From assembly GCA_009773155.1 (NCBI GenBank), contig WOVA01000002.1, positions 70,889 to 118,522 of the forward strand: DNA of 47,634 nt. The letters run 5' to 3'. How positions within the stretch are numbered: position 1 is the first letter of the stretch; every line of letters begins with the position of its first letter. Positions 2,191-25,867 of the stretch are shown here, one piece after another. The notes under the pieces were generated by a model. That model searched no databases. It was not told the DNA's origin and saw only the letters and a program-made list of their open reading frames with translations. This DNA is from Elusimicrobiota bacterium (GTDB taxonomy: Bacteria > Elusimicrobiota > Elusimicrobia > Elusimicrobiales > UBA9959). A program made the translations under genes and the position numbers.

Positions 2191-2340
2191 GCGTAGGCCT
2201 CGTCAAAGAATAACTGATACAATTTGGCCGGGCGATTTTATGGACGAACCAAGGAAGGAGGAGCGAGTAATAGCTTTGCTATACGAGCGACGACTGACGC
2301 CGGTGCGGTCAAAAAGCGCCCGGCCCCCAGGGGGAGGCCC

Positions 2341-2392
2341 GGCCCGTCGCAGAGCTCCGTGCACCGACAGCGGACAAAGCCGCCCTGGTCCG
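2341..2392 (+). repeat. R repeat, frame module without middle (copy in E1)
   Basis: Reads GTCGCAGAGCTC, then directly CACCGACAGCGGACAAAGCC and GCCCTGGTCCG. This is the two outer parts of the R repeat (compare 3935-4048) without the roughly 50-bp middle, the same short form as in kamC at 25645-25702. It is diverged (GGACAAAGCC for GGGCAATGCC). Confidence 0.7.
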
Positions 2393-2450
2393 TCTTTGGC
2401 CGGTTCCTTCGTTGCTCCTCACTTACAGACCACCGGTATGCTCGTTCGTC

Positions 2451-2500
2451 GGAACAGCGCCTCCGGCGCCCCAGGTGCCGGGAGTTATACGACCGGCCGC
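2451..2500 (+). repeat. R repeat, middle module only (copy in E1)
   Basis: Begins GGAACAGCGCC and continues CCAGGTGCCGG, ending TACGACCGGCC. It matches the middle of the R repeat (GGAACAACGAGCC, CACAGGTACCGG) found at 3961-4012 and 17821-17872 (minus). Here it is separated from the frame module by E-core sequence. Confidence 0.6.
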
Positions 2501-2562
2501 GCCTCGGACCCGGCTCAAATCCGGGTCTCCAAATCGTATCAGTTATTCTTTGAGGAGCCCTA

Positions 2563-3934: not shown

Positions 3935-4048
3935 CCCTGATCAGGCCCGTCGCAGAGCTCGGAACAACGAGCCACCGGCTCCACAGGTACCGGGCGCCAT
4001 GGCGCCCGGCCCGTGCGCCGACAGCGGGCAATGCCGCCCTGATCAGGC
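3935..4048 (+). repeat. R repeat, full copy between ferredoxin and MFS genes
   Basis: The 12-bp sequence CCCTGATCAGGC stands at both ends (3935-3946 and 4037-4048), offset by 102 bp. Between them: GTCGCAGAGCTC, GGAACAACGAGCC, hairpin GAGCC-ACC-GGCTC, hairpin CGGGCGCCATGGCGCCCG, CCGACAGCGGGCAATGCC. The right-hand direct repeat contains the stop codon of the MFS gene (minus strand). Other copies: 17786-17888 and 25645-25702 (both inside genes), with partial modules at 2341, 2451 and 16788. Confidence 0.8.
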
Positions 4049-5465: not shown

Positions 5466-5945
5466 ATGAATATCAACACAATTTCAGTCATTGCCGATAG
5501 CCGCGCGAACTCTCATAGCGACCTAGCGAGAATGGCCGGGATATCACGGCAGGCCGTTTCCAGCTGGTTCAGGCAAGGGCGCACGGAAATTGATGTCCGT
5601 GCCAGCCACCTGCAAAGATTGAGCCGGGCGCTGGGCGTCAGCATGGACGAACTCTCCCTGCCGCTGCCCTGCCTCCAATCCCCGGAACAGCGGGCCGCTC
5701 TGGGCGCCGGCCTTCTCTGGGACCGGCTTTACCCGGATGTCGGCAGCTTCGCGGCGGCGCTTGTGCGCGGCGAGGGGCGGGCGGTGGCGCGCCTGGTGGA
5801 GGTTTATGGCCTCTTTCTATCGGCCCGGATGCTGGGACGCTCTGTCTGGGTCTGTTTTCCGCAATACAAGAAATACCTTCCGCCGGTGCTCCGGCGGCAG
5901 TTGGAGGAACTATGGGCATTGAGCAGCCGCCTCGGCTGGATCTAG
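5466..5945 (+). CDS. HTH (XRE-like) regulator, probable antitoxin of an AbiEii-type module
   Basis: A 159-residue protein. Residues 15-62 form an XRE/Cro-type helix-turn-helix (SDLARMAGISRQAVSSWFRQG...RLSRALGVSMDEL). The rest is an uncharacterised helical domain ending YKKYLPPVLRRQLEELW. It overlaps the nucleotidyltransferase gene by 34 bp. The start at 5466 is chosen because an in-frame ATG at 5454 lies inside the -10 box. No ribosome-binding site is present, consistent with a leaderless transcript. Classical AbiEi antitoxins are winged-helix proteins, so this is a different antitoxin type. The role is inferred from pairing, overlap and operator. Confidence 0.8.
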   Translation: MNINTISVIADSRANSHSDLARMAGISRQAVSSWFRQGRTEIDVRASHLQRLSRALGVSMDELSLPLPCLQSPEQRAALGAGLLWDRLYPDVGSFAAALVRGEGRAVARLVEVYGLFLSARMLGRSVWVCFPQYKKYLPPVLRRQLEELWALSSRLGWI

Positions 5946-10257: not shown

Positions 10258-12046
10258 GCTCGTCCCCCTTGTCCGCTCCCAGCTCGCCGCGGAGTTTTTC
10301 CCGCTCGTATATCTGACGGTACAGCCCGCCCAGCGCCATCAGTTCCGTGTGGGTCCCCTGCTCGGCTATTTTTCCGCCGTCCAGCGTAAGGATGTGGTCC
10401 GAAGTCTCTATCGTGCGCGCCCTGTGCGTTACGGCCAGGCAGAGCGCGTCGGGGTGTTCCTTGCGGAACGCCTTCCAGAACTGGTATTCGGTCTGGGCGT
10501 CCATCGCGCTGGTGGCGTCGTCGAGCAGCAGCACGTCGGGGCCGGTCAGCAGGGCGCGCGCTATGGCCACGCGCTGCTTCTGGCCGCCCGAGAGCGCGAA
10601 GCCCCTGGTGCCGACCACGGTGTCGAGCCCCTTGGGGAACTTCTTAAGCTCGTTCTTAAGCTGGGAGGTCTCCAGCGCCCTTTCCAGCATCTCGTCCGTG
10701 ACGCCGAACTTGCGGTCCATGAGTATATTGTCCCGCAGCGTGCCCGTGAAGATGGCGGCTTCCTGGGCCGTGTAGCCCACCCGCTCGCGGAAGACGCGCA
10801 GGTTCCACCGGCGTATGTCGGCGCCGTTGACCAGCATCTCCCCCTCGTCGTGCTCGCTGAGGCGCAGGGCCAGGCCCAGCAGGGTGGACTTGCCGCTGCC
10901 TATCTTTCCCACCACGGCGACGCGCTGGCCCCGCTCGGCCCGGAAGTTTATCCCGCGCACCAGCATGCCGTCGCCTTTGGGGTTCTGCAGGCCGGCTCCG
11001 CGGAATTCCATGGAGGTTATGCGGTCGGGGGTGGTCATGTCCCCGCAAGGCAAGGACAAGTCGCCGAGGCCAGACTTAAGGGACGACCGGGACTTGAGCA
11101 GTTCGTCGACGCGCTTGATGGAGACGCCGGCGCGGTTGCCGGCCACCACGAACTGGCTTATATCCATCAGCGGGTGCACCACCATGTTGGCGTAGAACTG
11201 GAAGGCTATCAGCTCGCCCAGCGTGGCCCCGCCGTTCATGACCAGCAGGCCGCCGGCGGCGTAGAGCAGGGCTATGGAGAGGAAGCCAGCCTCGTGCCAG
11301 AAGTAGGAGAGTATGACCTGCAGCCGGGCCGTGGCTATTTCGCCGTCCCTCTGGGCCGCGGTACGGCTCCTGAAGAAGCCGACCTGGGAATTCTCCTTTG
11401 CGTTGGCCTTTATGACGCGTATGCCGGTGAAGCAGGTCTCCAGGAAGTCGAAGAGATTGGTTATCGACTCCTGCAACTCCTTGTATTTGCCGCTGAGCAG
11501 ACGGCCCGTGCGTATGGAGGTCATCAGCACCAGCGGCAGGGGCAGCAGGACGAAGGCGGCGAGGGTCGGATTGAGGTAGAGCATCATCGAGACGGCCGCC
11601 GTCAGCGTGAAGCAGGCCTGGATGAAGCGGAAAACGCCCGAGCAGGAGAACCAGGAGATCTTCTCGGAGATGTCGTCGGAGAGGCGGGCCACCAGGTCGC
11701 CCGTAGTGAAGCGGTGGAAGAAGTTGCGGTCCATCCCTATGACATGGTCGAAGGCCTTGCGGCGTATCTCCCACTCCAGCCGGGCGTTCATCCAGGCCCG
11801 GTTGCGCTGGGCCACCAGGTTGACGAGGAACAGTCCCAGCCCGACCGCCAGTATCATCGTCACGTTATGGCGCAGGTATTCGGGGTTGAGGTTGGCGCCG
11901 AGGCCGTTGACGATGTTCTTGATCAGCACCGGGTTGACGGTGTGCAGGACGGCGCTCATCATGCCGAAAACCACGATCACGGTCATGCGGACCGCGTGTT
12001 CGCGCCAGTAGGGCAGCAGCCAGCGGAGGGTCTTACCGAGCGTCAT
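10238..12046 (-). CDS. ABC exporter half-transporter B (degenerate Walker B)
   Basis: A 602-residue fused TM-NBD protein. There are six TM helices in residues 1-310. Walker A GKIGSGKST is at about 380-388, signature LSGGQ about 485-489 (canonical), Walker B LLLDDATSAMD about 506-516. The catalytic Glu is replaced by Asp. With the partner at 12317-14095, which has an intact Walker B but a poor signature, this is the pattern of heterodimeric exporters with one degenerate ATP site. The start is the ATG at 12046. Upstream in-frame codons to 12091 belong to element E2, whose arm covers codons 1-4. The exported substrate is unknown (lipid or drug). Confidence 0.92.
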   Translation of the reverse strand: MTLGKTLRWLLPYWREHAVRMTVIVVFGMMSAVLHTVNPVLIKNIVNGLGANLNPEYLRHNVTMILAVGLGLFLVNLVAQRNRAWMNARLEWEIRRKAFDHVIGMDRNFFHRFTTGDLVARLSDDISEKISWFSCSGVFRFIQACFTLTAAVSMMLYLNPTLAAFVLLPLPLVLMTSIRTGRLLSGKYKELQESITNLFDFLETCFTGIRVIKANAKENSQVGFFRSRTAAQRDGEIATARLQVILSYFWHEAGFLSIALLYAAGGLLVMNGGATLGELIAFQFYANMVVHPLMDISQFVVAGNRAGVSIKRVDELLKSRSSLKSGLGDLSLPCGDMTTPDRITSMEFRGAGLQNPKGDGMLVRGINFRAERGQRVAVVGKIGSGKSTLLGLALRLSEHDEGEMLVNGADIRRWNLRVFRERVGYTAQEAAIFTGTLRDNILMDRKFGVTDEMLERALETSQLKNELKKFPKGLDTVVGTRGFALSGGQKQRVAIARALLTGPDVLLLDDATSAMDAQTEYQFWKAFRKEHPDALCLAVTHRARTIETSDHILTLDGGKIAEQGTHTELMALGGLYRQIYEREKLRGELGADKGDERDGQPA

Positions 12047-12314
12047 GCAAGTAATATCCTCGTTGGAGGCCTGTATTTGAGATGGATGCAAGGCGCGAGG
12101 AGCGAGCAGGCCTGCGGGCCTGTAAGCGAGGAGTAACGAAGCAGCCGCTCAAATACAGGCCTCCTTTTTCCCGACGGGAAAAAGGCCGGACGCTTTTGGG
12201 CTTAACCTGCGTCAGTCGTCGCTCACATAGGAAAACTATAGTTCGCTCCTCCTTCCTTTGTTTCGCTCCAAAATCGCCTCGGCCAACAAGGACATTACTT
12301 GCATGACGCTCGGT
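12035..12314 (-). repeat. E2: 280-bp intergenic element with locus-specific inverted arms
   Basis: It lies between the two ABC exporter genes. Arms 12035-12066 and 12283-12314 are inverted repeats (30 of 32; both differences would be G-U pairs in RNA made from the minus strand). One arm covers the ribosome-binding region, start codon and codons 2-4 of exporter B. The other begins two bases after the stop of exporter A. An inner perfect 17-bp inverted repeat (CTCAAATACAGGCCTCC and its complement, about 12065-12081 and 12150-12166) and the hairpin CCTTTTTCCCGACGGGAAAAAGG-type stem near 12161-12185 nest inside. The core is shared with E1 in inverted genomic orientation. No gene is seen. Confidence 0.8.
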
Positions 12315-16787: not shown

Positions 16788-16838
16788 CGGAACAACGAGC
16801 CTCTGGCTCATAAAGTGTCGGCCGCTATGCGACCGACC
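16788..16838 (+). repeat. R repeat, middle module only, in the oxidoreductase operon leader
   Basis: CGGAACAACGAGCC, hairpin GAGCC-TCT-GGCTC, then GTGTCGG...TATGCGACCGACC. It matches the middle module of the R repeat at 3961-4012. The flanking frame module (CGCAGAGCTC and GGGCAATGCC) is absent. On the minus strand it lies in the 5' leader between the predicted promoter and the delta subunit. Confidence 0.6.
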
Positions 16839-24234: not shown

Positions 24235-25867
24235 TCTTTTCCTCCATGGATCTTTCCGCCGCCTTTATGATCCGGGCGGGCACGCCCAGGATGGCGGCGA
24301 TATTAAGGGCGTCGGCCGGGCCCGCTCCGCTTTTATCGGCCGCGAGCCCGTAGCGCATGAATCTGTTTATCGTTTTGAGTTTCTCGCGCAGGCCGGCCGT
24401 CGTCTTCCCCTTGTACTGCTTCCTGAACGCGGCCGTGTCGAAACCGAGCATGCGCAGGGCCGCGGCCTCCCGGGGCAGGGCGGCCCGGAAATGGGTGGCC
24501 AGCATGAGATGGACGTGGCGGTTGGAGGCGGCTTCGCCGAGCACTCCCGAGATCAGGGCCGAGGCCTCCGCGGCATTGGTCGTCCTGGCGAATTCGTCCA
24601 TGACGAGCAGCAGCGGCTCGCCGGCGGCGGCCCAGGCGCGGTTGAAGGCCTCCATTTCCAGGCCGAAGGCGCTCAGGCCCTCCGCCTTGTCGTCGGGATC
24701 CCCCCAGACCGCGGCCAACCCGGCGAAGACGGGGGCGGAATATTTTTTGGCGGGGACGAAAAAGCCGGACTGGGCGGCCAGCTGCAGCAGCGTCACGGTC
24801 TTGAGGACGACCGTCTTGCCTCCCATATTCGAGCCATGTATGACTGCCAGGCGCTTATCGAAGACGAAATCGAGCGGTGTGTAGGGCAGGTCGTATCCCG
24901 CCAGCGTCCGTTCCAGCGGCAGGAAGCGGGCCCCGCTGACCTTTATCGGGGAGTCGGCGGGCGAGAGTTCCGGACGGGAGAGCGAGAGTTCTCTGGCCAT
25001 CCTGGCCCTGGCGAAAGCCCGGTCGCAGAGCTCCACGGCCCGCGCGCAGGCCTCCAGCTCCGCCCCCGCGCCCGCAACAGCGGCCCACAGCTCCGCGCAG
25101 GCGAGGGCTTCCGCCTTGCCCTCTTCCGCGCGCAGGCGCTCGCGTTCGCCGGAGAGTTCCAGCCAGGCGGGCGTCATGATGGGCTTGGCCGTTACCCGGC
25201 CGGCGTCATAGGGTTCGGTGAAAACGCAGCCCGACTCGCAGAGGGGCCGGGCCCTGTCCTCGGCGATGACCAGGAAATCCAGATTGCCGAAGTCCAGGCC
25301 GGAGCGTTTTCGTATCCCGGCCAGGCGCTCGGCGCGCAGGCCGGAGAGATGGCGGTCCGTATCGGTTATCGCCCGGCGCAGTTTCGCCAGGACGGGGCTG
25401 AACGAGTCCGCTATGTGAAAGGCTCCCGATTGAGCCCCCCTGTCCAGGAGGGTCAGCAATTCCGCGCAGTTCCAGCGGAAGCCCAGTTTTTTCGCCAGCG
25501 GGGCGGGCAGCAGGCGGGCCACGGCCTTGAAATTTGAAAGGAAACGGTGGACCAGGAAAAGCCCGGCGGGGCCCGAGGCGGGTCCGTCGGAGGGCAGCTC
25601 CGGGATGTGCCTCAGGTGCCAGGCGAGTTTGTCGGCTTTCGCCTTGTTCCGGCCACTCGCAGAGCTCGTGGCACCGACTGCGGGCAATGCCGCCCTGTTC
25701 CGCGAGAAGGCGACGAAGTCGGCGGTAAGATCGTAGATGTTCTCCAGCTCCTGGGGAGAGGAATAGAAAGTCCCGCGCGCTTTTTCCTCCCGGCCATAAG
25801 GGGTCAGCGGCGCGTAATGGGCCAGGAACTCGTCGAACTCGCAGAATTTGGCGGCAGTCTCGTTCAT
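24221..25867 (-). CDS. kamC: MutS-related ATPase of the lysine fermentation cluster, with R-repeat insertion
   Basis: A 548-residue protein with only the MutS core and ATPase: Walker A GSNMGGKT (345-352), Walker B VMDEFARTTN (422-431, D424/E425), and ATHF. It lacks the mismatch-recognition domain. Genes of this kind sit beside kamB in other lysine clusters and have been proposed to maintain or reactivate the B12-dependent lysine 5,6-aminomutase. That role is not shown by this sequence. Residues about 56-72 are encoded by a 51-bp R repeat (25645-25702), kept in frame near the N-terminus. The start overlaps the kamB stop by 4 bases (ATGA). Confidence 0.88.
   Translation of the reverse strand: MNETAAKFCEFDEFLAHYAPLTPYGREEKARGTFYSSPQELENIYDLTADFVAFSRNRAALPAVGATSSASGRNKAKADKLAWHLRHIPELPSDGPASGPAGLFLVHRFLSNFKAVARLLPAPLAKKLGFRWNCAELLTLLDRGAQSGAFHIADSFSPVLAKLRRAITDTDRHLSGLRAERLAGIRKRSGLDFGNLDFLVIAEDRARPLCESGCVFTEPYDAGRVTAKPIMTPAWLELSGERERLRAEEGKAEALACAELWAAVAGAGAELEACARAVELCDRAFARARMARELSLSRPELSPADSPIKVSGARFLPLERTLAGYDLPYTPLDFVFDKRLAVIHGSNMGGKTVVLKTVTLLQLAAQSGFFVPAKKYSAPVFAGLAAVWGDPDDKAEGLSAFGLEMEAFNRAWAAAGEPLLLVMDEFARTTNAAEASALISGVLGEAASNRHVHLMLATHFRAALPREAAALRMLGFDTAAFRKQYKGKTTAGLREKLKTINRFMRYGLAADKSGAGPADALNIAAILGVPARIIKAAERSMEEKNAGN
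25645..25702 (+). repeat. R repeat, short copy inserted in frame in kamC
   Basis: Direct repeats TGTTCCG at 25645-25651 and 25696-25702 flank CTCGCAGAGCTC, CACCGACTGCGGGCAATGCC and GCCC. The offset is 51 bp (17 codons). The middle module of the full repeat is missing. The repeat is antisense to kamC and adds RAALPAVGATSSASGRN-type residues without a stop. Confidence 0.8.

What the first reader, a model, noticed from the sequence alone, without database searches (positions are those of the whole stretch)
3935..4048. Modular R repeats bracketed by locus-specific direct repeats
Copies fall into an outer module (GTCGCAGAGCTC...GGGCAATGCCGCC) and a middle module (GGAACAACGAGCC...). Two copies have both, two have only the outer part (2341, 25645), and two have only the middle (2451, 16788). 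The bordering direct repeats differ between loci (CCCTGATCAGGC here, TGTTCCG in kamC, TG[AG]TCCG-GGCC at 17786), which is what target-site duplications look like. No transposase is nearby, so the element would be non-autonomous.
Basis: seen in the sequence. Interest (0 to 1): 0.75.

Follow-up and report, generated by a model that had tools for sequence, protein, structure and literature searches.

The report
Tiny hairpin elements hidden in genes
The repeat is one of many copies of a roughly 50-letter, two-hairpin mobile DNA element found in Elusimicrobiota bacteria, which slips into genes without duplicating its target and, in the lineages whose length is a multiple of three, without breaking the reading frame.

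Summary
The 'outer' and 'middle' modules are one family in opposite orientations: a 48-51-nt element, 5'-GGAWCA, hairpin I, linker ending GGT, hairpin II, C-3'. The copy at 3944-4045 is a 51-nt element with another inserted in it. Covariation supports both hairpins (9 of 12 pairs change on both sides; 0 of 500 shuffles as high). Nine insertions compared with same-genus relatives are exact, without target duplication (22 of 23 relative sites empty). The host genome has at least 98 copies; 10 of 61 genomes searched carry clear copies, all in one Elusimicrobiota family. Where elements are 48/51 nt they lie in genes (G007 36 of 39; own genome 49 of 72, six frames used); in G008, mostly 50 nt, 1 of 25 do. 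Anatomy, a fixed C 5' of the insertion and lack of duplication fit trans-mobilisation by an IS200/IS605-type Y1 transposase; that step is inferred. Closest kinds: Rickettsia palindromic elements, REP/REPIN, cyanobacterial small dispersed repeats, mitochondrial double-hairpin elements.

The parts
3944..4045 (-). Host element of the O subfamily (51 nt: 3944-3960 plus 4012-4045), split by a nested element; the whole insertion is 102 bp
   Evidence: (weak model hit 4008-4045 because the host is split)
3961..4011 (+). Nested M1 element, 51 nt, inserted after GAGCTC of the host element
   Evidence: E 3.5e-14
3935..3943 (-). Probable remnant of the 5' end of a second, tandem element (source of the CCCTGATCAGGC 'direct repeat')
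   Evidence: inference: relatives have a different, longer spacer here
2341..2391 (-). O element, 51 nt, inside a TIR-type MITE
   Evidence: E 1.3e-10
2451..2498 (+). M3 element, 48 nt, inside the same MITE
   Evidence: E 6.6e-17
16789..16838 (+). M-type element, 50 nt, intergenic; exact empty site in G001, G002, G003
   Evidence: E 3.5e-17
17790..17888 (+). O element split by a nested M2 (99 bp in all), in frame inside ORF 16910-18703 (-)
17824..17871 (-). Nested M2 element, 48 nt
   Evidence: E 1.1e-15
25651..25701 (-). O element, 51 nt, in frame inside a MutS-domain-V protein gene (24221-25867, -); exact empty site in G001, G002, G003

Best explanation
A family of 48-51-nt non-autonomous mobile elements of Elusimicrobiota. 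Shown: each copy is 5'-GGAWCA, hairpin I (4-5 bp), linker ending in GGT, hairpin II (usually a 4-5-bp stem, tandem G.A mismatches or their Watson-Crick replacement, a 2-3-bp cap and a three-base loop), terminal C; it inserts in a fixed orientation after a target C (mostly GNC; GGCC for the O subfamily) with no target-site duplication; elements insert into each other and next to each other. Shown: lineages of length 48 or 51 sit inside genes and are read through in any of six frames, while a lineage of mostly 50 nt is confined to intergenic DNA. Inferred: the element is the minimal pair of ends of an IS200/IS605-type system, moved as single-stranded DNA by a Y1 (HUH) transposase supplied from elsewhere in the genome; the flanking C and the terminal C would be cleavage sites, and GGA/GGT next to the hairpin feet guide sequences. 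Inferred: length divisible by three and few stop codons were favoured because insertions that keep the frame survive. My split: family, structure, precise insertion and in-frame residence about 0.95; frame-preservation as a selected trait about 0.7; Y1 mobilisation about 0.45.
For: Covariation: 9 of 12 pairs with both-side changes, 43 cells against 11.9 shuffled, 0/500; folding as DNA gives the two hairpins for all 4 sequences tried, 2 of 4 with z below -3. Empty sites: 8 genes and 1 intergenic site, 23 relative sites, 22 empty, 1 with the O element but without the M2 that our copy carries. Target C 47 of 49, 15 of 15 and 15 of 15. In genes: G007 36/39 (random 0.89), own 49/72 (random 0.92), G008 1/25 (random 0.73); G007 against G008 p = 2.7e-13. 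Six frames used 11, 3, 4, 2, 12 and 7 times in 39 in-gene O copies. Y1 family present in all 10 genomes with clear copies; reverse transcriptase not found in 5 of them, including G007 with at least 125 copies.
Against: No Y1 gene is bounded by these ends: in 29 Y1 loci searched the only good model hit is one incidental neighbour in G008. Y1 genes are also present in many genomes without the element. The best candidate clade (that of L110) has 57%-identical and 36%-identical members in G029 and G031, which lack clear copies, and strong members are missing from 5 of 10 carriers. No strand bias against GC skew, 37 of 70, although skew here is too weak to be a fair test. The O consensus folds only slightly better than shuffles (z -1.2). 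In the own genome genes are still under-occupied, 68% against 92%. GC content and subfamily also differ between G007 and G008, so length is not the only possible cause of the contrast.
Confidence: 0.62

Rival explanations
1. Classic MITE moved by a DDE transposase, with target-site duplications that differ between loci.
For: Locus-specific flanking direct repeats exist at 3935/4037 and 25645/25696; ordinary TIR MITEs do occur in this genome (2194-2562).
Against: No duplication at any of 9 compared insertions; no per-copy likeness of flanks above permutation for O; no terminal inverted repeats; nested copies show clean junctions.
Confidence: 0.02
2. Another enzyme that leaves no duplication does the moving: an IS110-type recombinase, a serine or tyrosine recombinase, or an HUH enzyme outside PF01797.
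For: No target duplication; the O target GGCC^GG resembles the abutted ends of the element; no Y1 gene is flanked by the element's ends.
Against: No specific candidate was found, and I did not search those families; the hairpins and single-strand guide-like motifs fit Y1 systems best (recalled knowledge of IS200/IS605).
Confidence: 0.3
3. Mobility through RNA and reverse transcription.
For: Compact covarying hairpins fold well as RNA too.
Against: PF00078 not found in G001, G002, G004, G007 and G018, all carriers; few G.T/T.G pairs among the stem pairs.
Confidence: 0.05
4. Not selfish: the element is kept as a functional peptide insert or as an RNA control element.
For: Many copies sit in conserved enzyme genes and are read through.
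Against: All six frames are used, so no common peptide; nearly all relatives lack the insert at the same site; nested and tandem copies; one genome keeps them outside genes.
Confidence: 0.06
5. The insert is removed from the message or skipped by the ribosome, like an intron or a mitochondrial byp element, so frame would not matter.
For: Two-hairpin inserts in essential genes recall byps (recalled).
Against: Skipping would not need lengths divisible by three; 48 of 49 in-gene insertions are 3n (the exception is a nested complex whose borders I set by hand) and the mostly 50-nt lineage is almost absent from genes.
Confidence: 0.04

Closest known systems
Rickettsia palindromic elements (RPE)
   Same: Small palindromic repeats inserted in frame in housekeeping genes as well as between genes (PMC10969869, passages).
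   Different: About 150 bp with a conserved encoded peptide, as that review puts it; here 48-51 nt, two hairpins, all six frames used, elements nested in each other, and a sister lineage of other length that stays out of genes. No sequence comparison with RPEs was made here.
REP / REPIN with RAYT (Y1) transposases
   Same: Hairpin repeats in high copy, associated with a Y1 protein related to IS200/IS605, some as doublets (PMC2817692 and PMC3116915, passages).
   Different: REPs carry a GT(A/G)G head, pair as inverted doublets, flank their rayt gene and are extragenic. Here the two heads (GGAWCA and GGT) both stand 5' of their hairpins, no Y1 gene is flanked by copies, and copies live in genes.
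IS200/IS605-derived MITEs (PATE type)
   Same: Subterminal hairpins, short fixed target 5' of the insertion, no target duplication (recalled, apart from the lack of larger duplications, PMC2817692 passage).
   Different: No autonomous relative with these ends was found; the element is nothing but the two ends. The PATE comparison is recalled.
Small dispersed repeats of cyanobacteria (Elhai et al. 2008)
   Same: Very small mobile repeats.
   Different: Recalled from memory; the paper is not held and is seen here only as a citation in PMC3116915. Sequences not compared.
Double-hairpin elements of mitochondria
   Same: Two short hairpins as one mobile unit.
   Different: Organelles, not bacteria. 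Known here from recall and a search listing only; sequences not compared.

Membership tests
DDE-type MITE | Target-site duplication | tested here: not met
DDE-type MITE | Terminal inverted repeats | tested here: not met
   Element ends GGAWCA and RCC are not inverted repeats beyond two bases
IS200/IS605 (Y1) derived element | No target-site duplication, insertion 3' of a short fixed sequence | tested here: met
IS200/IS605 (Y1) derived element | Subterminal imperfect hairpins at both ends | tested here: met
IS200/IS605 (Y1) derived element | Ends shared with an autonomous element carrying a Y1 gene | tested here: not met
   29 Y1 loci searched with the model: none bounded by the ends. Not every Y1 gene of every carrier was searched
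IS200/IS605 (Y1) derived element | Preference for the lagging-strand template | tested here: inconclusive
   37 of 70 on the G-rich strand, skew at most about 0.05
REP / REPIN | Y1 (RAYT) gene flanked by the repeat | tested here: not met
REP / REPIN | Extragenic location | tested here: not met
   (met only in G008)
Rickettsia palindromic element | In-frame insertion into protein genes | tested here: met
Rickettsia palindromic element | Length near 150 bp with a conserved peptide | tested here: not met
   48-51 nt; six frames used
Rickettsia palindromic element | Sequence homology to RPE families | not tested
   No RPE sequence was fetched; none of the 32 genome contigs matches is from Rickettsia
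Known structured RNA (Rfam) | Match to a curated family | tested here: not met
   window 1-30000: no match reaches its gathering score, and none lies on a copy up to E 5

The most novel reading that the evidence does not exclude
A bacterial transposable unit tuned for life inside genes: about 50 nt, nothing but two hairpin ends, length fixed at a multiple of three and open in most or all six frames, so that many insertions, even nested and tandem ones, add 16-34 residues to core enzymes instead of destroying them, while a sister lineage of the wrong length is shut out of genes.
Probability: 0.6. Interest if true: 0.82.

Novelty: new variant of a known kind. Interest (0 to 1): 0.72.

Why it matters
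It gives, in one bacterial family, a natural experiment on how a mobile element comes to live in coding DNA: the same structure at 48/51 nt fills genes and at mostly 50 nt does not. It is a source of ready-made protein inserts (argS, moaA, purQ, pheT, pheS, pyrC, rsmE, hflX and a MutS-type gene in this genome), which matters for annotation and for protein evolution. The elements are also very small for mobile units with covariation-supported structure, which makes the minimal substrate of their transposase testable. My paper searches listed no account of such repeats in Elusimicrobiota; those searches cover open-licence papers only.

Tried and rejected
Target-site duplication: rejected. Known RNA family: none. 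Strand bias against GC skew as a test of single-strand transposition: null, skew too weak. Y1 loci as autonomous parents: the L110 gene has its own palindromic flanks and so does L115 (20-nt perfect inverted repeat); the one element beside L115 lies outside that repeat. Y1 clade co-occurrence: a clade seemed confined to carriers (quick tree of 71 proteins, the careful search did not finish), but a wider protein search found a 57% identical member in G029, which has no clear copies. Counting homologues of at least 160 bits, 5 of 10 carriers and 1 of 27 other genomes of the family have one (Fisher p 0.003); the cut-off was chosen after seeing the tree, so only a lead. The clade's palindromes (GGGGACAG, GGGGTCAG) resemble the element's GGAACAG/GGATCAG start; not pursued. 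Reverse transcriptase: not found in five carriers. A selected peptide: rejected because six frames are used. Six open frames as a selected trait: 18 of 29 O copies are open in all six against 0.19 for shuffles of the same composition, but M1 has 4 of 19, so only suggestive. Muribaculaceae hit L064: only the 21-nt pattern matches, taken as chance.

Limits of counts. One search scored at most about 98 candidates in its quick pass for most genomes, so large copy numbers are lower bounds. The 72 own insertions lie in 34 fetched stretches plus the window (707 kb) chosen because they hold matches; borders of nested groups were set by hand and a few are rough (L163, L168, L169, L170). G008: 25 insertions in 20 fetched stretches, out of at least 113 matches. 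G007: 39 insertions in named JACQWV loci found by exact pattern, hence biased to M1. In one search, 20 of 31 rows were used: 11 were dropped, one a match cut by a contig end and ten short paralogous matches. In one search, L171:8976 and window 2451 have identical flanks (they sit in copies of one MITE) and are not independent; one row (L170) is mis-set and was left in. In one search the aligner misplaced the gaps of pyrC and of rsmE in G001; I read those from the ungapped matches.

Full report
What was checked. BLAST with the 121-bp region finds 59 matches in the host genome, a 2.76-Mb assembly in 93 contigs. An exact 21-nt pattern from the middle part hits 32 stretches of public genomes, 31 of them Elusimicrobia/Elusimicrobiota MAGs and one chance-like match in a Muribaculaceae MAG.

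One family, not two modules. Read on the bottom strand, the 'outer' part is GGAWCAGGGCGGC-loop-GCCGC...GGTGCCGG...CCGGCC, and the 'middle' part on the top strand is GGAACAACGAGCC-loop-GGCTC...GGTGCCGG...CCGGCC. They share the plan GGAWCA, hairpin I, linker ending GGT, hairpin II, C, and are subfamilies (O 51 nt; M1 51 nt; M2 and M3 48 nt; low-GC relatives mostly 50 nt). M elements sit in O in antisense at two different points (GAGCTC^CCGGC and CCGGC^ACCGAC), M2 sits in M1 in L015, O sits next to O in tandem (L100, L105, L029), and in G007 a composite with M1 inside M2 recurs many times. So both parts move on their own, and composites can multiply.

Structure. On 36 diverse seeds (A1), 90.0% of cells pair, 9 of 12 pairs change on both sides, 43 cells show such changes against 11.9 in shuffles (0 of 500), and sliding the partner by 1 to 3 columns cuts paired cells to 31-43%. 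Hairpin II has tandem G.A mismatches in O, M2 and M3 and Watson-Crick pairs in M1, with a TAT/TCT-like loop. Folding gives two hairpins for the single strand as DNA and as RNA in the four sequences tried, though for M2 the pairing of hairpin II differs between the two parameter sets.

Precise insertion. Flanks of eight in-gene insertions (argS, moaA, purQ, pheT, pyrC, hflX, rsmE and a MutS-domain gene in the window) were compared with three same-genus genomes at 69-91% identity. Of 20 orthologous sites, 19 are uninterrupted; where the alignment gap is clean the difference is exactly 51 or 102 bp with no duplication. In rsmE, G002 has the O element at the same place without the M2 that our genome carries: most simply O came first and M2 later. 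The 50-bp intergenic element at 16789 is likewise absent, without duplication, in all three relatives. Nine of ten ORFs scanned have Pfam matches (the window ORF 16910-18703 has none at 1e-5); moaA and purQ also match PDB chains in two stretches that break at the insert; hflX and pheS are named from my own reading of the sequence.

At 25651 the repeat TGTTCC is the element's own end on the right and native target on the left, since the relative L138 has TTGTTCCG uninterrupted. At 3935-3946 and 4037-4048 the relatives have a longer spacer with a terminator-like hairpin, so no empty site is available; the left repeat reads, in element orientation, TGATCAGGGCCGC after the element's end, close to the element's start GGATCAGGGCGGC. 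I take it as a stub of a tandem second copy, an inference. In this copy the first base change (G to T) also gives the neighbouring transporter gene its TGA stop at the position where relatives have GCC TGA.

Target. In element orientation the base 5' of the insertion is C in 47 of 49 O, 15 of 15 M and 15 of 15 G007 insertions; position -3 is G in 43 of 49, 13 of 15 and 8 of 15; O prefers GG on the 3' side (37 and 33 of 49). Left flank and element end are no more alike within copies than between copies for O and for G007; for the 15 M insertions the likeness is slightly above permutation (0.733 against 0.675, p 0.048).

Distribution. With the covariance model, at E up to 0.01, 14 of 61 genomes match: own genome at least 98, G007 125, G008 99 (113 at E up to 1e-4), G004 31, G025 30, G018 23, G002 20, G001 12, G003 8, G005 2, and one or two weak matches in four others; none of the 24 genomes of the sister family matches. 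Large numbers are lower bounds.

Living in genes. A codon-usage gene finder written for this purpose puts 49 of 72 own insertions inside open genes (random positions 0.92), 36 of 39 in G007 (random 0.89) and 1 of 25 in G008 (random 0.73). Own and G007 elements are 51 or 48 nt and their nested sums, with three 50-nt exceptions in the own genome; G008 elements are mostly 50 nt, with 45, 48, 49 and 51. G007 against G008: p = 2.7e-13. In the own genome 48 of 49 in-gene insertions are multiples of three, against 18 of 23 others (p = 0.011); the in-gene call itself requires an open frame, so the contrast between genomes is the stronger evidence. All six frames are used in 39 in-gene O copies: 11, 3 and 4 sense, 2, 12 and 7 antisense. 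Different GC content and different subfamilies separate G008 from G007, so length is the simplest but not the only possible cause.

How it moves. Y1 transposase genes are present in all ten carriers, and reverse transcriptase is not found in five. The arrangement cleavage C, GGA, hairpin, GGT, hairpin, C matches the layout of IS200/IS605 ends as I recall it. No gene bounded by these ends was found among 29 Y1 loci. Hence Y1 mobilisation in trans is my best guess, at about 0.45.

Verdict. A real, well-supported family of very small mobile elements. It works like RPEs in where it lives and like IS200/IS605 ends in how it inserts, but fails membership of both on tested features.

Noticed in passing
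window 2194-2562: TIR-type MITE (34-bp inverted ends, TA at both borders) just upstream of an ABC-transporter ATPase gene; absent from G001, G002 and G003. It carries one O and one M3 element; another copy is suggested at L171 by identical M3 flanks.
   Followed up: partly
window 12035-12314: Second repeat bounded by 32-bp inverted ends (ACCGAGCGTCATGCAAG...), with 95 nt of interior related in inverted orientation to 2231-2325: two MITEs with different ends and shared inside.
   Followed up: no
L018, L098, L099, L100: Another palindromic repeat, of the type GGGGGACACCATGCGGCATGGTGTCCCC, recurs in this genome and is itself invaded by O elements at its centre.
   Followed up: no
L283, L286, L289, L290, L291 (G008): Several G008 elements sit at the same point of a larger repeat with a GGAAGTCCGACTTC arm on the left, and a GGAAGACGGACTT-like arm on the right in L283 and L286, so a larger unit may carry them.
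   Followed up: no
L110 and L115: Y1 transposase genes bounded by their own palindromes (AAAAGGGGACAGGCTACTTTT; AATGGGGTCAGCCACCATTT), whose GGGG[AT]CAG core recalls the element's GGA[AT]CAG start.
   Followed up: partly
   Followed up: yes
window 4043-4045: The transporter gene ends in a TGA formed by the first bases of the inserted element, at the codon where relatives stop.
   Followed up: partly
window 5684-5728: Weak model match (21.9 bits, E 0.00018) that may be a decayed copy.
   Followed up: no
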